From Gemmatimonadota bacterium (lineage in GTDB: Bacteria; Gemmatimonadota; Gemmatimonadetes; Gemmatimonadales; Gemmatimonadaceae), in NCBI GenBank assembly GCA_027622655.1, contig JAQBYI010000024.1, positions 1 to 50,426 on the forward strand: a stretch of 50,426 nt of DNA, in the 5' to 3' direction. The notes beneath the pieces are model-generated. The model was not told the DNA's origin and searched no databases. It saw only the letters and a program-made list of their open reading frames with translations. Made by a program: the position numbers and the translations under genes. Shown here piece after piece: positions 1-7,067 of this stretch (positions are counted from its first letter, which is position 1; every line of letters begins with the position of its first letter).

Positions 1-1
1 T

Positions 2-76
2 CATACGTCTACGGCCAAGACGTGCGCCATCGCAGTTGGCGGCACCGCCACGAACGAAGGCGAGCCGGTTTGCTAA
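2..76 (+). CDS. 3' end of a pilin-like protein (partial)
   Basis: An open frame enters from the left edge and stops with TAA at 74-76. Its last 24 residues include AKTCAIAVGG and end in Val-Cys. Two cysteines near the C terminus of a Gly/Thr-rich end resemble minor or type IV pilins, and a terminator-like hairpin follows 38 bases later. The pilin reading is inference and rests on very few residues. It gains some weight from the secretin (PilQ) fragment about 1 kb downstream. Confidence 0.4.
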   Translation, partial: HTSTAKTCAIAVGGTATNEGEPVC

Positions 77-113
77 GGTCGGCTTGATCCGATTCAATCA
101 GCTTTGAAGGTAC

Positions 114-140
114 GGGCCGGGCGACTCAGTCGCCCGGCCC
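114..140 (+). terminator. Hairpin after the pilin-like 3' end
   Basis: A perfect 12-bp GC-rich stem (114-125 pairing with 129-140) closes a 3-base loop. No T-run follows, so this is a strong hairpin without a classical intrinsic-terminator tail. It separates the upstream frame from the kinase starting at 157. Confidence 0.6.
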
Positions 141-156
141 GCACTATCTTCCAGAC

Positions 157-1197
157 ATGAAAACGCCGAAAGGTGAGCGCGCGGCTGGAGACTCTGCCAG
201 CGACGCAGCCAGCGATCCGGCTGCCGAAGTAGAGCGACTGCGGGTTGAGATCAAGGTCCAGCGTGAGCAGCTCGAGCGGCTAGCTGGTGGCGGGCGTCTG
301 GTGGCCATGCTGCTGCACGAGCTTGGCAATCCGGTATCTGCGATCATCAACTACGCGCATTCGCTGGAGCAGAAAGTGGCGCCCGATCTCAGGGGCACCG
401 TTGCGTCACTGCAGCGCGAGGCGTTCAGGGTAGTGAAGCTGCGCGACGGGTTCCTCGACTTTGTTCGTCCGAAGGATGCGTCCGAAACAGGTGCCGATCT
501 GAACGCAGCCGTGCGCGAAACGCTCGGCTTCCTCGACGATCAGGGCGCACTCAGGCGAATCGAGGTCGACCTCCAGATGTCCGCGGCGCCGAAGCCGACG
601 CGCGGTACGGCGCTCGAGCTTGAGCAGGCCATCGCGAATCTGGTGTTGAACGCGGCCGCAGCGATGCCGGAGGGTGGACGGCTCGTGATTTGGGCCGAGC
701 GGTACAACCGCCAGGCGCTTATTGAGGCTTCAGCGCGTCGTACCGACGGCGAAGACGGTCGCATCGTTCACCCGCGTCGTGCCGATGACAAGTTGTCCAC
801 GTGGCTCGAGTCGCTAGACGTAGAAGAGGTCGTGAAGATCGTTGTCGCCGACTCCGGACACGGGTTCCACCACGGCAACCTCGAAAAGGTTTTCGAACCG
901 TTTTTCAGTTCGAAGGAGCCCGACGATGGTGTGGGACTCGGGTTGACAGTGGTGCGACGGGTTGTGGACTCGATGGGCGGCATCGTCTGGGCCCAGAAAT
1001 CGCGTGAGGGCGGCGCTGCATTCCACATCGTTCTTCCCGTGCATCCCGATCCTGATGGACCTCCCGATCATCGGCCGGCTCTTCTCGCAGACCGACGTGA
1101 TCGAGCGCAAGCAGGACCTGCTGATCCTGGTCACGCCGCACATCGTGGACGAAGGCGAAGTAGTACGGCGCCAGCGCCCCCCCCCGGCAGCCCGTGA
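157..1197 (+). CDS. Sensor histidine kinase, 3' end replaced (chimeric)
   Basis: Cytoplasmic two-component histidine kinase without an obvious membrane segment. A short coiled-coil-like N terminus (residues 23-45) precedes the phosphoacceptor box LLHELGNPV with His54. Asn165 lies in the N box (LVLNAAAAMPEGG), and the ATP-binding domain continues with DSGHGF, FEPFFSSK and GVGLGL. The kinase is coherent up to about residue 296 (FHIVLPV). Beyond base ~1040 the frame is meaningless Pro/Arg/His-rich sequence, because from there another frame encodes a secretin C terminus. The native stop of the kinase is therefore lost and the last ~50 residues are an artefact of the junction. There is no receiver or partner regulator nearby. 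Confidence 0.8.
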   Translation: MKTPKGERAAGDSASDAASDPAAEVERLRVEIKVQREQLERLAGGGRLVAMLLHELGNPVSAIINYAHSLEQKVAPDLRGTVASLQREAFRVVKLRDGFLDFVRPKDASETGADLNAAVRETLGFLDDQGALRRIEVDLQMSAAPKPTRGTALELEQAIANLVLNAAAAMPEGGRLVIWAERYNRQALIEASARRTDGEDGRIVHPRRADDKLSTWLESLDVEEVVKIVVADSGHGFHHGNLEKVFEPFFSSKEPDDGVGLGLTVVRRVVDSMGGIVWAQKSREGGAAFHIVLPVHPDPDGPPDHRPALLADRRDRAQAGPADPGHAAHRGRRRSSTAPAPPPGSP

Positions 1198-1219
1198 CCG
1201 CGCTGACAGACTGACCTGA
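1043..1219 (+). pseudogene. pilQ: C-terminal fragment of a PilQ/GspD-type secretin
   Basis: In the frame +1 relative to the kinase, about 58 codons read through the signature end of type II/IV secretins: IPILMDLPIIGRLFS, then ERKQDLLILVTPHIVDEG, then a Pro/Arg tail ending at TGA 1217-1219. The family pattern is vPxLxDIPilGrLF followed by xxxxLlIlITPrIV. Everything upstream (N domains and most of the secretin domain) is missing, and kinase sequence abuts it directly. PilQ normally forms the outer-membrane pore of type IV pili, and pilQ often lies just before aro genes, as here. A run of nine C residues occurs at 1177-1185. It is either a natural deletion remnant or an assembly join. Confidence 0.8.
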
Positions 1220-1223
1220 ACGC

Positions 1224-1258
1224 GCCCGGCGCTGAATTCCACCGCCGGGCCCGTTTTT
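1224..1258 (+). terminator. Intrinsic terminator after the secretin fragment
   Basis: An 8-bp perfect stem (GCCCGGCG at 1224-1231 with its complement at 1243-1250) is followed after CCG by five T residues (1254-1258). It starts 5 bases after the secretin stop, which fits the end of a former pil operon, and it isolates aroC at 1277. Confidence 0.75.
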
Positions 1259-1276
1259 GGCTCTTGAAACTGACCA

Positions 1277-2476
1277 ATGTCCCACATTCGTTTTTCCACT
1301 GCCGGTGAGTCGCACGGGCCCGCCCTAGTGGCCATCATCGAGGGGCTGCCGGCCGGAGTGCCGTTGCTCGCGGCCGACGTCGACGGCGAACTGGCCAGGC
1401 GCCAGAAGGGCTACGGACGCGGCAGGCGCATGCAGATCGAGCAGGACGCGATTGAGCTCCTGAGCGGAGTACGCGCCGGCGAAACGCTCGGTTCGCCGAT
1501 CGCCATGCTGATTCGAAACCGCGACTGGAAGAACTGGTCGGAGATCATGGACCCCGGCTTGCGAGACGAAGATGCCGGCGCAGGCCGCAAGCGACAGCTC
1601 ACACGCGTCAGGCCTGGCCACGCCGACCTTTCGGGTATGCTCAAATACGACCGGCGCGATGCGCGCGACATTCTTGAACGCGCGTCGGCGCGCGAGACAA
1701 CCGCGCGAGTGGCCGCCGGTGCGGTGGCGCGTGTCCTGCTCGCCCAGCTTGGCATCACCATCGGGTCACATGTCGTTCACCTCGGTGGTATCGACGCTGC
1801 CTCGCCAACCACTCTTCCCGACGATCTCAACGCCGCCGCCGACGCTTCACCGCTGCGAACGCTCGACGCGGCCGCAGACCAGCTCATGATTGCGCGGATA
1901 GACGAACTCAAGGCCTCCGGTGACACCGCTGGTGGAATCGCCGAAGTCGTCGTGCGCGGCCTGCCGGTGGGACTCGGCAGCCACGTAAGCTGGGACCGCA
2001 AACTCGATGGCCGACTCGCGCGTGCGATTCTCTCGATTCCAGCCGTGAAGGGAATGGAGATAGGCGCCGGATTCGACGCGGCCCGAAAGAGCGGATCGGA
2101 AGTGCACGACGAGATCGAGCCGGCCCCCGGAACGCCGCGCACTGGCAACGTGCGCCGTCGCACCAATCGCGCCGGTGGACTCGAAGGCGGAATCACGACC
2201 GGCGAACCGCTCGTGTTGCGCGCGGCCATGAAGCCCATCTCGACGCTCATGACTCCGTTGGCCACGATCGACGCAGCCACAGGCGCCGCGGCGCTCGCCG
2301 CCGCGGAGCGGTCCGATGTAACGGCCGTGCCAGCAATGGCGGTCATCGCCGAATCAATGACGGCGTTGGTTCTTGCCGACGCTGTGATGGAGAAGTTTGG
2401 TGGGGACTCACTCGGCGAGCTACGCCGGAATCTCGATGGCTACCTTTCGGACGTCGCGGCCCGTTTCGGTCGCTGA
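1277..2476 (+). CDS. aroC: Chorismate synthase
   Basis: Converts 5-enolpyruvylshikimate-3-phosphate to chorismate using reduced FMN, the last step of the shikimate pathway. The 399-residue protein starts RFSTAGESHGP, the classical N-terminal signature with the catalytic His. It continues with QKGYGRGRRM and ends in the conserved Ala-rich region (VTAVPAMAVIAE, DAVMEKFGGDSLGE). Length matches the family of 360-400 residues. It overlaps the start of the shikimate kinase gene by about 40 bases, indicating co-transcription and likely translational coupling of the two shikimate-pathway genes. Confidence 0.97.
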   Translation: MSHIRFSTAGESHGPALVAIIEGLPAGVPLLAADVDGELARRQKGYGRGRRMQIEQDAIELLSGVRAGETLGSPIAMLIRNRDWKNWSEIMDPGLRDEDAGAGRKRQLTRVRPGHADLSGMLKYDRRDARDILERASARETTARVAAGAVARVLLAQLGITIGSHVVHLGGIDAASPTTLPDDLNAAADASPLRTLDAAADQLMIARIDELKASGDTAGGIAEVVVRGLPVGLGSHVSWDRKLDGRLARAILSIPAVKGMEIGAGFDAARKSGSEVHDEIEPAPGTPRTGNVRRRTNRAGGLEGGITTGEPLVLRAAMKPISTLMTPLATIDAATGAAALAAAERSDVTAVPAMAVIAESMTALVLADAVMEKFGGDSLGELRRNLDGYLSDVAARFGR

Positions 2477-2990
2477 CGTTACCAAGCCCAGCATCCTGCT
2501 TGTTGGCCTGCCTGGCTCGGGCAAGTCGACCGTAGGACGTGCCGTTGCCGAAGGATTGGGTCGCGAGTTCCTCGACTTCGACGCCGAGATTGAGCGCCGC
2601 GAGGGAGCGACGGTGGCCGAGATCTTTGCCGCCAGTGGCGAGCCGCGTTTCAGGGCGCTCGAGCGGAAGCTCACGGAAGAGCTCGTCGAGGTCCGCAACT
2701 TCGTGCTGGCGCCCGGTGGCGGATGGGTGTCGAATCCCGGCTGTCTGGAGCTGCTACGGCCCGTGGCGACGGTCATTTATCTGCAGGTCGAACCGTCGCG
2801 CGCGCTGACCCGGATGGCCGCCGGAGCGGCGTCGCGCCCTCTATTACGTCGGCCAGACCCTCTTTCGGAATTGAAAACATTGCTCGCCGCGAGGGAGTCT
2901 ATGTATCTCCTTGCAGATCATACAGTTAGGGTTGATTTTGTGCGTGAAAATGAGGTCGTTGCAACTATAACAGCGCTTGCGGGGCTGTAA
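2436..2990 (+). CDS. aroK: Shikimate kinase
   Basis: Phosphorylates shikimate at the 3-hydroxyl with ATP. Residue numbers are from ATG 2436: Walker A GLPGSGKS at 24-31, the shikimate-binding DFDAEIE at 48-54, the GGG motif at 94-96 and the lid Arg134 in ASRPLL. The protein is 184 residues long. An ATG 39 bases upstream (2397) is also in frame, but it would add 13 residues absent from the family, so 2436 is preferred with some doubt. The last ~120 bases (2866-2990) are clearly more AT-rich than the neighbourhood. aroB, a frequent partner, is not next. Confidence 0.93.
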   Translation: MATFRTSRPVSVADVTKPSILLVGLPGSGKSTVGRAVAEGLGREFLDFDAEIERREGATVAEIFAASGEPRFRALERKLTEELVEVRNFVLAPGGGWVSNPGCLELLRPVATVIYLQVEPSRALTRMAAGAASRPLLRRPDPLSELKTLLAARESMYLLADHTVRVDFVRENEVVATITALAGL

Positions 2991-3107
2991 CGACCGGACT
3001 AGGATAGCGGTCTTCAGTGAGCGTACAACCATAAAGCGACCGGATTGGCCCGGATGCGACGCATTCGTCGGCGCAGCGACCGTTCGGACTCGAATTCGAA
3101 GAGAGAG

Positions 3108-5624
3108 ATGGTAACCAAGAAGAAGACCGCCAAGAAGCCAACTGCGACTACAGCAGCCGACACTACGTCAGCCGAAACCCCCAAGGCGGCGGCGAAGCCC
3201 AAGGCTGCGCCAAAGGCAAAGGTGGCGGCGAAGCCCAAAGCCGCGGCGAAGGCAAAGGCGGCGGCCAAATCTGCGGCGCGCAAGCGTGTGGCTGCGCTTG
3301 AGGACACCGGGTCGTATCTGGCACCTGGCGTCGCTGCGGCCATGACCGGTCGTTCACTTGTGATCGTCGAGTCGCCCGCAAAAGCGAAGACGATTGGCAA
3401 GTACCTGGGGTCGGCGTACGCGGTAAAGGCCACCGTCGGCCACATCCGCGACCTGCCGACCAAGACACTCGGCATTGACCTGACAGATGGTTTCGAGCCC
3501 GAGTACGTGACGATCCCGGGAAAGGAAAAGATCGTCGCAGAACTCAAGCAGGCAGCGAAAGGCGCGAAGGCTGTGTACATCGCGACCGATCCGGACCGCG
3601 AAGGCGAGGCCATTGCGTGGCACGTCCAGTCCCAGATCAAGGGCAAAGGCACGGGTGTGATCAGCCGCGTGCTGTTCCACGAAATCACGAAGGAAGCAGT
3701 CACAAAGGCAATTGAAAGCGCCGGTGAGATAGACACGCGCAAGGTCGATGCGCAGCAGGCTCGCCGTGTGCTCGACCGACTGGTGGGATACAAGGCCAGT
3801 CCGGTTCTCTGGAAAACCGTGAAGAAGGGTCTCTCCGCGGGACGCGTGCAGACCGTGGCGCTGCGGTTGCTCGTCGAGCGCGAGCGTGAAATACGTGCGT
3901 TCAACGCCGTGGAGTACTGGTCCATCGCGGCGACGCTGATGCACGACGGCCAGGAGTTCACGGCCAAGCTCCATCACGTGGACGGCAAGAAGCCGGAGAT
4001 CCCCACGGCCGATGCCGCCGACCGAATCGTCAATGACGTTGGCGCCCGCAAGACGTTTGACGTCACGGATATCAAGCGACGCGAACGTCGCAAGAATCCG
4101 GCTGAACCGTTCAAGACGAGCACGCTTCAGCAGGAAGCGGCCAAGAAGCTCGGGTTCGGTTCCAAGCGGACCATGCGGTTGGCCCAGAATCTGTACGAAG
4201 GTATCGAGCTCGGGCGCGCCGAGGGCGCGGTCGGCCTCATTACATATATGCGAACGCCGGATACGCGCGTGGCGCTGAGCGCAGTCACGGCCGCGCGCGA
4301 GTTTCTGGTGACCCAGTACCCGAAGGAATTTCTCGCGCCGAAGCCAATGCTCTATGGGGCGCCGGGCGATGCCGATTCACCGCACGAGGGCGTTCGCCCG
4401 ACCGATCCCGCTCGCACGCCGGAGTCGGTGCAGCAGCATCTCTCTCCCGAACAGTTCAAGCTGTACACACTCATCTGGCAGCGGTTCATGGCGAGCCAGA
4501 TGGCGCCGGCGGTATTCGACACGACCACTGTGGACTTCGATATCGAGGCTACGAGGCGCTACCTGTTCCGCGCCACCGGATCTGTGGTGAAGTTTCTGGG
4601 ATACCAGGCGCTCTACAAGGAGACGCGCGAAGAGGGCGAAGGGAAGGCGCTCGAAGATGAGCAGGCACTACCGGCGATCGAGCCGGGCGAGCACGCTCCC
4701 GTCGTTGCCGTCACGCCGGCGCAGCACTTTACGCAGCCACCGCCGCGCTTTTCCGAAGCGAGCCTCGTGAAGGAGCTCGAGCGCCTCGGCATCGGTCGGC
4801 CGTCCACGTACGCGTCAATCATCTCGACGCTCACCGATCGCCACTACGCCGAACTCGAACAGCGGCGCTTCTTTCCGACGGCGATGGGCGAGTCCGTCGA
4901 GAAGGTGATGGTCAAACAATTCCCGAATGAATTCAATGTCGGTTTCACGGCTGGCATGGAAGCCGAGTTGGACAAGGTCGAGGAAGGAAAGCTCGGCTGG
5001 CAGAGCGTACTCAAGGAGTTCTGGGGTCCGTTCGACACGGCGCTGTCGACAGTGGACTACGAAGGGCTTATTCAGGCGGCCCACGACCTCTCCGCCCTCG
5101 CGACCGAGAAGTGTCCGACGTGTGCGGGCAAGCTCGTCGCCAAGGGCGGGTTTTTTGGGCCGTTCGTCGCGTGCGAGAACCATCCCAAGACGTGCAAGTA
5201 CACTCGCCCGCTCAAGGGCGAGTGCGTACCGCCGACGCTTACCGAGCACATCTGCCCGCTGTGCGCCAAGCAGATGGTGACTCGACGAGGCCGGTCTGGC
5301 GAATTCCTCGGCTGCTCGGCGTTTCCGAAGTGCCGTGGGACACGATCGATGCCGACCGGCGTGAAGTGCCCCAAGGATGGCGGCGACATTGCGGCGCGCC
5401 GGTCCAAAAAGCGCGGGAAGGCGTTCTACGGTTGCGAGAACTACCCGAAGTGTGATTTTGTGTGCTGGGACAAACCAGTTCTGGAGAAGTGTCCGGAGTG
5501 TGGCAACATCGGCGCGGAGTCAAAGTCGAATCGCACCCGCGGAACGTTCCGTCGCTGCCTGAAGTGCGCAAACGAATGGTCGGTGACGGAGCCGGCCGAG
5601 ACAGCGGACATGACAGGTGGTTGA
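3108..5624 (+). CDS. topA: DNA topoisomerase I (type IA) with N-terminal Lys/Ala tail
   Basis: Relaxes negative supercoils through a 5'-phosphotyrosyl intermediate. ATG 3108 follows the purine-rich GAAGAGAGAG and gives 838 residues; TTG 3045 is also in frame upstream. Residues 3-65 form a Lys/Ala/Pro-rich, histone-H1-like extension before the Toprim domain (LVIVESPAKAKTIGKYLG). The catalytic region reads ITYMRTPDTR with Tyr380; the usual family sequence is YMRTDS, so the Asp after Thr is Pro here. Three or four C-terminal zinc ribbons follow (CPTC, CPLC, CPKD, CPEC), the third lacking its second Cys. It opens the topA-trmFO-xerC-hslVU block, and trmFO starts 30 bases after its stop. Confidence 0.97.
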   Translation: MVTKKKTAKKPTATTAADTTSAETPKAAAKPKAAPKAKVAAKPKAAAKAKAAAKSAARKRVAALEDTGSYLAPGVAAAMTGRSLVIVESPAKAKTIGKYLGSAYAVKATVGHIRDLPTKTLGIDLTDGFEPEYVTIPGKEKIVAELKQAAKGAKAVYIATDPDREGEAIAWHVQSQIKGKGTGVISRVLFHEITKEAVTKAIESAGEIDTRKVDAQQARRVLDRLVGYKASPVLWKTVKKGLSAGRVQTVALRLLVEREREIRAFNAVEYWSIAATLMHDGQEFTAKLHHVDGKKPEIPTADAADRIVNDVGARKTFDVTDIKRRERRKNPAEPFKTSTLQQEAAKKLGFGSKRTMRLAQNLYEGIELGRAEGAVGLITYMRTPDTRVALSAVTAAREFLVTQYPKEFLAPKPMLYGAPGDADSPHEGVRPTDPARTPESVQQHLSPEQFKLYTLIWQRFMASQMAPAVFDTTTVDFDIEATRRYLFRATGSVVKFLGYQALYKETREEGEGKALEDEQALPAIEPGEHAPVVAVTPAQHFTQPPPRFSEASLVKELERLGIGRPSTYASIISTLTDRHYAELEQRRFFPTAMGESVEKVMVKQFPNEFNVGFTAGMEAELDKVEEGKLGWQSVLKEFWGPFDTALSTVDYEGLIQAAHDLSALATEKCPTCAGKLVAKGGFFGPFVACENHPKTCKYTRPLKGECVPPTLTEHICPLCAKQMVTRRGRSGEFLGCSAFPKCRGTRSMPTGVKCPKDGGDIAARRSKKRGKAFYGCENYPKCDFVCWDKPVLEKCPECGNIGAESKSNRTRGTFRRCLKCANEWSVTEPAETADMTGG

Positions 5625-5654
5625 GTTGGACGACAGGAAATAGGCGAGAGACGG

Positions 5655-7067
5655 ATGGGCAACGCGGTACACATCATCGGCGGTGGATTGGCGGGCTCGG
5701 AGGCGGCGTTCCAGCTCGCCGAGCGTGGGCACCACGTCGTCATCCACGAAATGCGGCCGGTGCGTTCAACGGCGGCGCACAAGACCGACCGCCTCGCTGA
5801 GCTGGTCTGTTCGAACACCTTCAAGAGCACCGAAGTCACGAATGCGCATGGCCTCCTGAAGGCCGAGATGCGACTCCTCGGCTGTGCGGTGCTCGAAGCG
5901 GCCGACGGCGCGCGGGTGCCGGGCGGCACAGCGCTCGCGGTTGACCGCGACGTGTTTTCACTGGCCGTTCACGAGCGCGTGACGTCGCACCCGCTCGTGC
6001 GCGTGGAACGGGGTGAAATCACCGAACTGCCGACGCCGGGCATCATTGCCACGGGGCCGCTCACAAGCGACGCGCTCGCCGAGTGCGTCCGTGCCCGGCT
6101 TGGCGTCGAGTCCCTCGCGTTCTACGACGCCATCGCGCCAATCGTGGCGGCGGAATCGATTGACGAGGCGATTGTCTTTCGCGCGTCGCGCTACGGCAAG
6201 GAAACGATGCAACGCGATGTCAGCGGTGCAGCCGATGGCTTGGCAGCCACAGACGACGCAACGGAGGCAGCGTACATCAATTGCCCGATGACGCGCGATC
6301 AGTACGAGGCGTTCATTACGGCGCTCTCCGAGGCCGACCAGTTCACCTCCCACGAATTCGACAAAGTGCCGTATTTCGACGGGTGCATGCCGGTCGAGGA
6401 AATCGCGCGGCGTGGACGCGAATCGCTCCGGTTCGGACCGATGAAGCCGGTGGGTCTCGACGATCCGCGTACGGGACGCTGGCCATACGCCGTCGTGCAG
6501 CTTCGCGCCGAGGACCGGGCCGGCCGTATGCGCAACCTGGTCGGGTTCCAGACGCGCCTCAGGATTCCAGAGCAACAGCGCGTATTTCGCATGATTCCCG
6601 GGCTCGAAAACGCAGAGTTTTTGCGATTTGGTTCAATCCACCGGAACGCATACGTCAACTCGCCGGCCGCGCTCACGCCGCATCTATCGTTGCGCGATGA
6701 CCCGCAGGTGCTGTTCGCCGGACAGTTGACCGGCGTCGAGGGCTATTCCGAGAGTACCGCAACGGGTCTGGTGGCGGCCATCAATCTCGACCGGATCCTT
6801 CGCGGTGAATCGCCGACGCTACCGCCGCCGACCACAATGCTCGGCGCGATCTATCGATATCTGCGCGAGGCCGACCCAAAGCACTTCCAGCCCATGAACG
6901 CCAATTTCGGGTTGCTCGAGGAACTCGCTGACCCGCCGCGCGACAAGGCGAAGAAAAAGGCGCTCTACGCTGAACGCGCGCTGCGCGATCTGCGGGTCTG
7001 GGCCGCCGAGGTCGGTGTGGCGCCGGGCCCGGGCGGTGTGGTCGGCGCAGGCCACAACTCGGTCTGA
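5655..7067 (+). CDS. trmFO: tRNA m5U54 methyltransferase, folate/FAD dependent
   Basis: Uses methylene-tetrahydrofolate and FAD to methylate U54 of the tRNA T-loop. The 470-residue protein opens with the FAD-binding GGGLAGSE (residues 9-16). It carries the conserved Cys52 in VCSNTFKS and Cys210 in INCPMTRDQ, and the later family sequences GPMKPVGL and GQLTGVEGY. It is probably co-transcribed with topA, an order shared with Bacillus. Its last 103 bases overlap the 3' end of the convergent kinase gene on the other strand. Confidence 0.96.
   Translation: MGNAVHIIGGGLAGSEAAFQLAERGHHVVIHEMRPVRSTAAHKTDRLAELVCSNTFKSTEVTNAHGLLKAEMRLLGCAVLEAADGARVPGGTALAVDRDVFSLAVHERVTSHPLVRVERGEITELPTPGIIATGPLTSDALAECVRARLGVESLAFYDAIAPIVAAESIDEAIVFRASRYGKETMQRDVSGAADGLAATDDATEAAYINCPMTRDQYEAFITALSEADQFTSHEFDKVPYFDGCMPVEEIARRGRESLRFGPMKPVGLDDPRTGRWPYAVVQLRAEDRAGRMRNLVGFQTRLRIPEQQRVFRMIPGLENAEFLRFGSIHRNAYVNSPAALTPHLSLRDDPQVLFAGQLTGVEGYSESTATGLVAAINLDRILRGESPTLPPPTTMLGAIYRYLREADPKHFQPMNANFGLLEELADPPRDKAKKKALYAERALRDLRVWAAEVGVAPGPGGVVGAGHNSV

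What the first reader, a model, noticed from the sequence alone, without database searches (positions are those of the whole stretch)
157..1219. Histidine kinase runs directly into the tail of a PilQ secretin in another frame
Kinase motifs continue to base ~1040 (FHIVLPV). From 1043 the frame +1 encodes the diagnostic secretin end (IPILMDLPIIGRLF, LLILVTPHIV) with its own stop and an intrinsic terminator 5 bases later. Neither gene is complete. This is a precise breakpoint: a deletion that removed the kinase 3' end plus almost all of pilQ, or a false contig join. If real, this lineage has lost its type IV pilus pore.
Basis: partly seen in the sequence, partly recalled or inferred. Interest (0 to 1): 0.7.

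Follow-up and report, generated by a model that had tools for sequence, protein, structure and literature searches.

The report
Scar of a lost pilus operon
A 7-kilobase deletion in a lake bacterium (phylum Gemmatimonadota) removed the pilMNOPQ genes, which build the type IV pilus base and pore, leaving a sensor-kinase gene joined to the last 45 codons of the pore gene; related genomes show the same operon was removed separately in several lineages.

Summary
Positions 157-1050 encode a complete HisKA/HATPase_c kinase (at most the last few codons replaced). Positions 1043-1176 encode the last ~45 codons of a PilQ secretin, then a frameshift at a C9 run, a terminator and aroC. Eight sister genomes carry both ends on one contig, 6.85-6.98 kb apart, with prepilins and pilM-pilN-pilO-pilP-pilQ between them. 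That segment exists nowhere else in this 99.7%-complete genome, while the same DNA search hits 16 of 18 genus genomes. The only other secretin is the GspD of a type II secretion cluster. The crossover lies in GCATCCCGAT (1041-1050), an inferred microhomology of up to 10 bp. Three results argue against an assembly artefact: pilB on another contig has two nonsense codons; sister genome G002 has a different deletion ending in the same pilQ tail; two genomes of another genus (G086, G087) have pilA directly before aroC. pilA is intact in all four genomes; pilT and pilC are intact in this one. This is an ordinary kind of event (gene loss) in an informative parallel series. Reads were not available.

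The parts
2..76 (+). last 24 codons and stop of a major pilin gene (pilA); the contig begins inside it
   Evidence: Translation HTSTAKTCAIAVGGTATNEGEPVC* equals the end of the complete pilA on contig C12 of the same genome; the pilA start lies at the end of contig C108
112..142 (+). strong GC hairpin between pilA and the kinase, conserved in relatives
   Evidence: -33.3 kcal/mol, z -6.9; the equivalent palindrome stands in G004, G001, G005 and G016
157..1197 (+). histidine kinase ORF, 346 aa; homologous to relatives up to about 1050 (298 codons), then 48 out-of-frame codons read from the pilQ remnant
   Evidence: HisKA + HATPase_c; relatives at 49-84% identity ending 3-10 residues after LPV
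1041..1050 (.). deletion junction, GCATCCCGAT: fits both the kinase 3' end (V-H-P-D) and the pilQ sequence (G-I-P-I), inferred microhomology of up to 10 bp
   Evidence: comparison with kinase ends and pilQ tails of relatives
1043..1219 (+). pilQ remnant: last ~45 codons of the secretin (to ~1176), frameshifted near a C9 run at 1177-1185, reading to a TGA at 1217-1219
   Evidence: PF00263 positions 134-169; best relatives 65-82% identical
1219..1260 (+). terminator-like hairpin and U-run that ended the pilMNOPQ transcript in relatives, now behind the kinase
   Evidence: -22.8 kcal/mol, z -3.0; equivalent hairpins after pilQ in G001, G005, G009, G011, G016 (seen in the sequences)
1277..2476 (+). 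aroC (chorismate synthase), intact; gene that follows pilQ in relatives
   Evidence: 73-83% identity to the aroC of 16 genus genomes

Best explanation
A deletion of about 6.9 kb removed everything between the last codons of a pilus-associated histidine kinase and the last ~45 codons of pilQ: prepilin-like genes, pilM, pilN, pilO, the gene in the pilP position, and nearly all of pilQ (inferred from the order in sister genomes). It probably arose by joining at a ~10-bp microhomology, GCATCCCGAT (inferred). The kinase was left functionally complete, with a short out-of-frame tail, and it now runs into the old pil-operon terminator. The pilus machine is dead: no PilQ, PilM, PilN or PilO, and pilB has two nonsense codons (shown). 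The leftover pilQ tail is drifting. The event belongs to a parallel series of type IV pilus losses in this family. Relaxed need for pili in small-genome, probably planktonic members is the likely driver (inference).
For: Kinase and pilQ-aroC lie on one contig, 6849-6977 bp apart and in the same orientation, in G001, G005, G006, G007, G008, G012, G013 and G016, with prepilin, pilM, pilN, pilO and pilQ genes between. The deleted segment of G013 as DNA query finds 16 of 18 genus genomes but not G000 or G002. True PilM is missing only in G000 and G002. The only other secretin is a GspD in a T2SS cluster. pilB has TAG and TAA codons inside an otherwise intact frame. G002 keeps the last ~19 pilQ codons joined to a glycosyltransferase end and lacks pilB. 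G086 and G087 have pilA directly before aroC, with pilB-pilT deleted as well. PilM survey: 99 of 108 family genomes over the cut-off.
Against: The genome is a 115-contig draft and no reads could be mapped, so coverage across 1041-1050 is unseen. Its 4.2% contamination estimate leaves room for strain mixtures: an undeleted strain could coexist. The microhomology is inferred from relatives at 75-84% identity, not from an undeleted allele of this species. pilA, pilC and pilT are still open in this genome, so the loss is recent or those genes have another use.
Confidence: 0.9

Rival explanations
1. False join by the assembler: the pil operon is present in the organism but was skipped between kinase and pilQ tail.
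For: Draft metagenome-type assembly; this contig ends in a duplicated pilA; no reads available.
Against: No copy of the 6.9-kb segment anywhere in the assembly, no PilM, no second PilQ. Only ~10 bp are shared at the joint, far shorter than an assembler k-mer. pilB carries two nonsense codons. G002 carries a comparable deletion with different ends.
Confidence: 0.06
2. Strain-level polymorphism: the deletion is one allele in a mixed population and other strains of the same species keep the pilus.
For: In G002 the two contigs flanking its own scar overlap by exactly 127 bp, as at an assembly-graph fork, so alternative sequences may exist at such sites. The pilB damage in G000 is only two nonsense codons, i.e. 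recent.
Against: No pil segment was binned with G000; its pilB assembled only in the broken form.
Confidence: 0.15
3. One ancestral loss shared by G000 and G002, with G002 later eroding further on both sides.
For: Both lack pilMNOPQ; G002's gap is wider on both sides, as nested erosion would give.
Against: The seven-protein tree puts G012, which keeps pilM to pilQ, as sister of G002 (99.5/100), inside the G000+G002 group; G000 still has a pilB gene while G012 and G002 have lost it.
Confidence: 0.1

Closest known systems
Type IVa pilus cluster pilMNOPQ with downstream aroC, as in sister Gemmatimonadota MAGs (e.g. G012 = JAPLKU010000018; split over contigs in G004 = VGVM01000094)
   Same: Same flanking genes, strand and order on both sides; the remnant is the end of that pilQ and its terminator
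   Different: The ~6.9 kb between kinase end and pilQ end is deleted here
Loss of type IV pili and motility on sediment-to-pelagial transition in Methylophilaceae (Salcher et al. 2019, PMC6794327)
   Same: Type IV pili lost in planktonic relatives of piliated ancestors, together with genome reduction
   Different: Different phylum; here the actual scars, intermediate states (broken pilB, kinase pseudogene) and retained pilins are seen
Lineage-specific decay of type IV pilus genes in Francisella (PMC2682660 came up in the search but was not read; content recalled)
   Same: Stepwise inactivation of single pilus genes by nonsense and deletion, as recalled
   Different: Host-adapted pathogen; there the losses are small, here the whole alignment complex and pore go in one event

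Membership tests
Functional type IVa pilus system | PilQ secretin with full C-terminal secretin domain | tested here: not met
   Only profile positions 134-169 of 169 remain at 1043-1150; the other secretin is GspD of the T2SS cluster
Functional type IVa pilus system | PilM-PilN-PilO-PilP alignment complex | tested here: not met
   No PilM over cut-off, only weak FtsA-like hits; DNA of the whole segment absent
Functional type IVa pilus system | PilB extension ATPase | tested here: not met
   pilB on C108 has in-frame TAG (codon ~367) and TAA (~461)
Functional type IVa pilus system | PilT retraction ATPase, PilC platform, PilA major pilin | tested here: met
   PilT 385 aa (TIGR01420, 487 bits), PilC 398 aa, complete pilA on C12
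Functional type IVa pilus system | Prepilin peptidase PilD | not tested
HisKA/HATPase_c histidine kinase | Phospho-accepting His in an H-box and N, G1, F, G2 boxes | tested here: met
   HisKA and HATPase_c over cut-off; LLHELGNP, NLVLNAAAAM, DSGHGF, FEPFF, GVGLGL present by inspection
PilS-type pilus regulator (kinase) | Membrane sensor kinase paired with a PilR response regulator | tested here: inconclusive
   Lies between pilA and the prepilin genes in relatives, but no NCBIfam equivalog reaches its cut-off and no partner regulator was looked for

The most novel reading that the evidence does not exclude
The pilin is kept for a purpose: in the lineages that deleted the pilus base and pore, pilA (and in some pilC and pilT) stays intact because it serves another machine, for example a pseudopilus driven by the resident type II secretion system.
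Probability: 0.12. Interest if true: 0.65.

Novelty: new member of a known kind. Interest (0 to 1): 0.38.

Why it matters
Gene loss is ordinary, but this locus offers a readable series: intact operon (G006, G013), kinase pseudogene and pilB lost with pilMNOPQ kept (G012), pilB broken plus a 6.9-kb deletion (this genome), a wider deletion (G002), and pilA brought next to aroC (G086, G087). It lets one ask which pilus part goes first and why the pilin is the last to go, and it warns that annotation pipelines may count pilA, pilT and pilC as 'type IV pili present' in lineages that cannot make one.

Tried and rejected
The secretin on C28 as a hidden PilQ: it sits with GspE-, GspF- and GspG-like genes and scores higher as GspD (221 vs 173 bits), although neither score reaches its curated cut-off. 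Foreign or contaminant half of the contig: G+C is steady at 0.59-0.67 across 1-6000 and both halves have their best matches in the same genus. Naming the host from genome contigs: only relatives were returned. [quoted passage not shown] no report of this locus was found. The consensus promoter/terminator scan did not list the 1219-1260 hairpin, probably because its loop is too long for that scan; folding found it.

Full report
What is in the sequence. The window is a whole contig (C27, 50,426 bp) of a 3.14-Mb, 115-contig genome estimated 99.67% complete and 4.2% contaminated. It begins inside a pilin gene: bases 2-76 encode HTSTAKTCAIAVGGTATNEGEPVC-stop, identical in protein to the end of a complete pilA on contig C12. 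The first bases of the same pilin lie at the end of contig C108, behind a glycosyltransferase-TPR gene. The near-identical pilA copies explain why the assembly breaks there. A strong hairpin follows (112-142), then the kinase ORF from 157 (HisKA and HATPase_c). FHIVLPV ends at 1041. From 1043, in another frame, stands the end of a secretin (PF00263 positions 134-169), then a run of nine C at 1177-1185, a stop at 1217-1219, a terminator-like hairpin and intact aroC from 1277.

What the sisters show. In eight genomes of the genus the kinase end and the pilQ end lie 6849-6977 bp apart on one contig in the same orientation. Between them are prepilin-like genes, pilM (TIGR01175, 231 bits), pilN, pilO, a gene in the pilP position (no Pfam hit), and a pilQ with AMIN, N0, N1 and secretin domains. 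Their kinases stop 3-10 residues after LPV, so the window's kinase is complete in all but a few codons. Its frame now runs on for 48 codons, through the pilQ remnant, to the TGA at 1195-1197. Comparison of kinase ends (...LPVHPDAVNR...LPVNPDVQ) with pilQ ends (...GIPxLMDLP) places the crossover within GCATCCCGAT at 1041-1050, which fits both. That this is a microhomology of up to 10 bp is inference.

Is it real? The missing segment is not elsewhere. As a DNA query it finds 16 of 18 genus genomes but not this one or G002. PilM is missing in exactly those two. The only other secretin is GspD in a T2SS cluster on C28. On contig C108, pilB has two in-frame nonsense codons in an otherwise open frame, while pilT and pilC are open. 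Two separate lesions in the same pathway are not expected from an assembly error, and a 10-bp overlap is too short for an assembler to join on. Reads could not be examined.

A series of losses. In G002 (2.4 Mb) a glycosyltransferase end is followed by the last ~19 codons of pilQ and then aroC; kinase, prepilins and pilMNOPQ are gone, and pilB is gone from between its neighbours. In G012 pilM to pilQ are present and open in the reading frames inspected, but the kinase has a nonsense codon and frameshifts, and pilB has been removed together with part of the gene before it. A seven-protein tree gives (G000,(G002,G012)) with 99.5/100 support for G002+G012, so the losses in G000 and G002 were most likely separate. 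In another genus, G086 and G087 (2.3 and 2.1 Mb) carry a TPR gene, then an intact pilA, then aroC directly. Their pilB-pilT are deleted too, and in G087 half of pilC. Across 108 family genomes at least 90% complete, 99 pass the PilM cut-off, two have partial hits and seven have none; four of the seven are 2.0-2.4 Mb. For G077 the pilM absence may be missing data, since it keeps a pilQ at a contig edge.

What remains, and how it probably works. pilA, pilC and pilT are open here. Branch lengths give no clear sign of relaxed constraint in PilT or in the kinase of this genome, whereas PilT and PilC are about two to five times faster in G002; pilA keeps the prepilin motif in all. The simplest reading is recent loss here and older loss in G002, with small genes surviving longest. 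The kinase, next to pilA in relatives, is probably a pilus-gene regulator that has lost most of what it served; it is now transcribed, if at all, into the old pil terminator (inference). A kept function for the pilin is possible but unproven.

Verdict. The finding is confirmed as a genuine deletion scar, with the correction that the kinase is essentially whole. It is an ordinary evolutionary event with an unusually legible comparative record. Pelagic loss of type IV pili has been described in Methylophilaceae (PMC6794327); no description of this Gemmatimonadota series was found in the papers searched.

Noticed in passing
G000:C3:10754-13102 (L113:5755-8103, - strand): A PilB/GspE-type ATPase (782 aa: MshEN, T2SSE) carries a C-terminal response-regulator receiver domain (PF00072, 104 bits); similar-length T2SSE proteins (755-826 aa) occur in several genomes of the genus. 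A secretion ATPase possibly gated by phosphorylation.
   Followed up: partly
G000:C12:15323-15694 (L124:1824-2195, - strand) and window 2-76: Two near-identical pilA copies in one genome: the last ~69 bp and the first ~60 bp of the coding sequence are identical between C12 and the C108/C27 copy, flanks differ. Suggests recent duplication or gene conversion between two pilin loci.
   Followed up: partly
G002 contigs C2:1-127 and C6:1-127 (L138, L063): The two contigs that meet at G002's own deletion scar overlap by exactly 127 bp, as expected from an assembler k-mer at a graph fork; a second allele may exist in that sample.
   Followed up: no
G086:C2 and G087:C5 (L140, L141, L145, L148): In both genomes pilA stands directly before aroC and pilB-pilT are deleted between their neighbours, but pilA is intact in both; the pilin outlives its machine.
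   Followed up: partly
G012:C15:71465-72301 (L057): The orthologous kinase in the Lac Pavin genome is a pseudogene (nonsense plus frameshifts) although the pilM-pilQ genes after it are open.
   Followed up: yes
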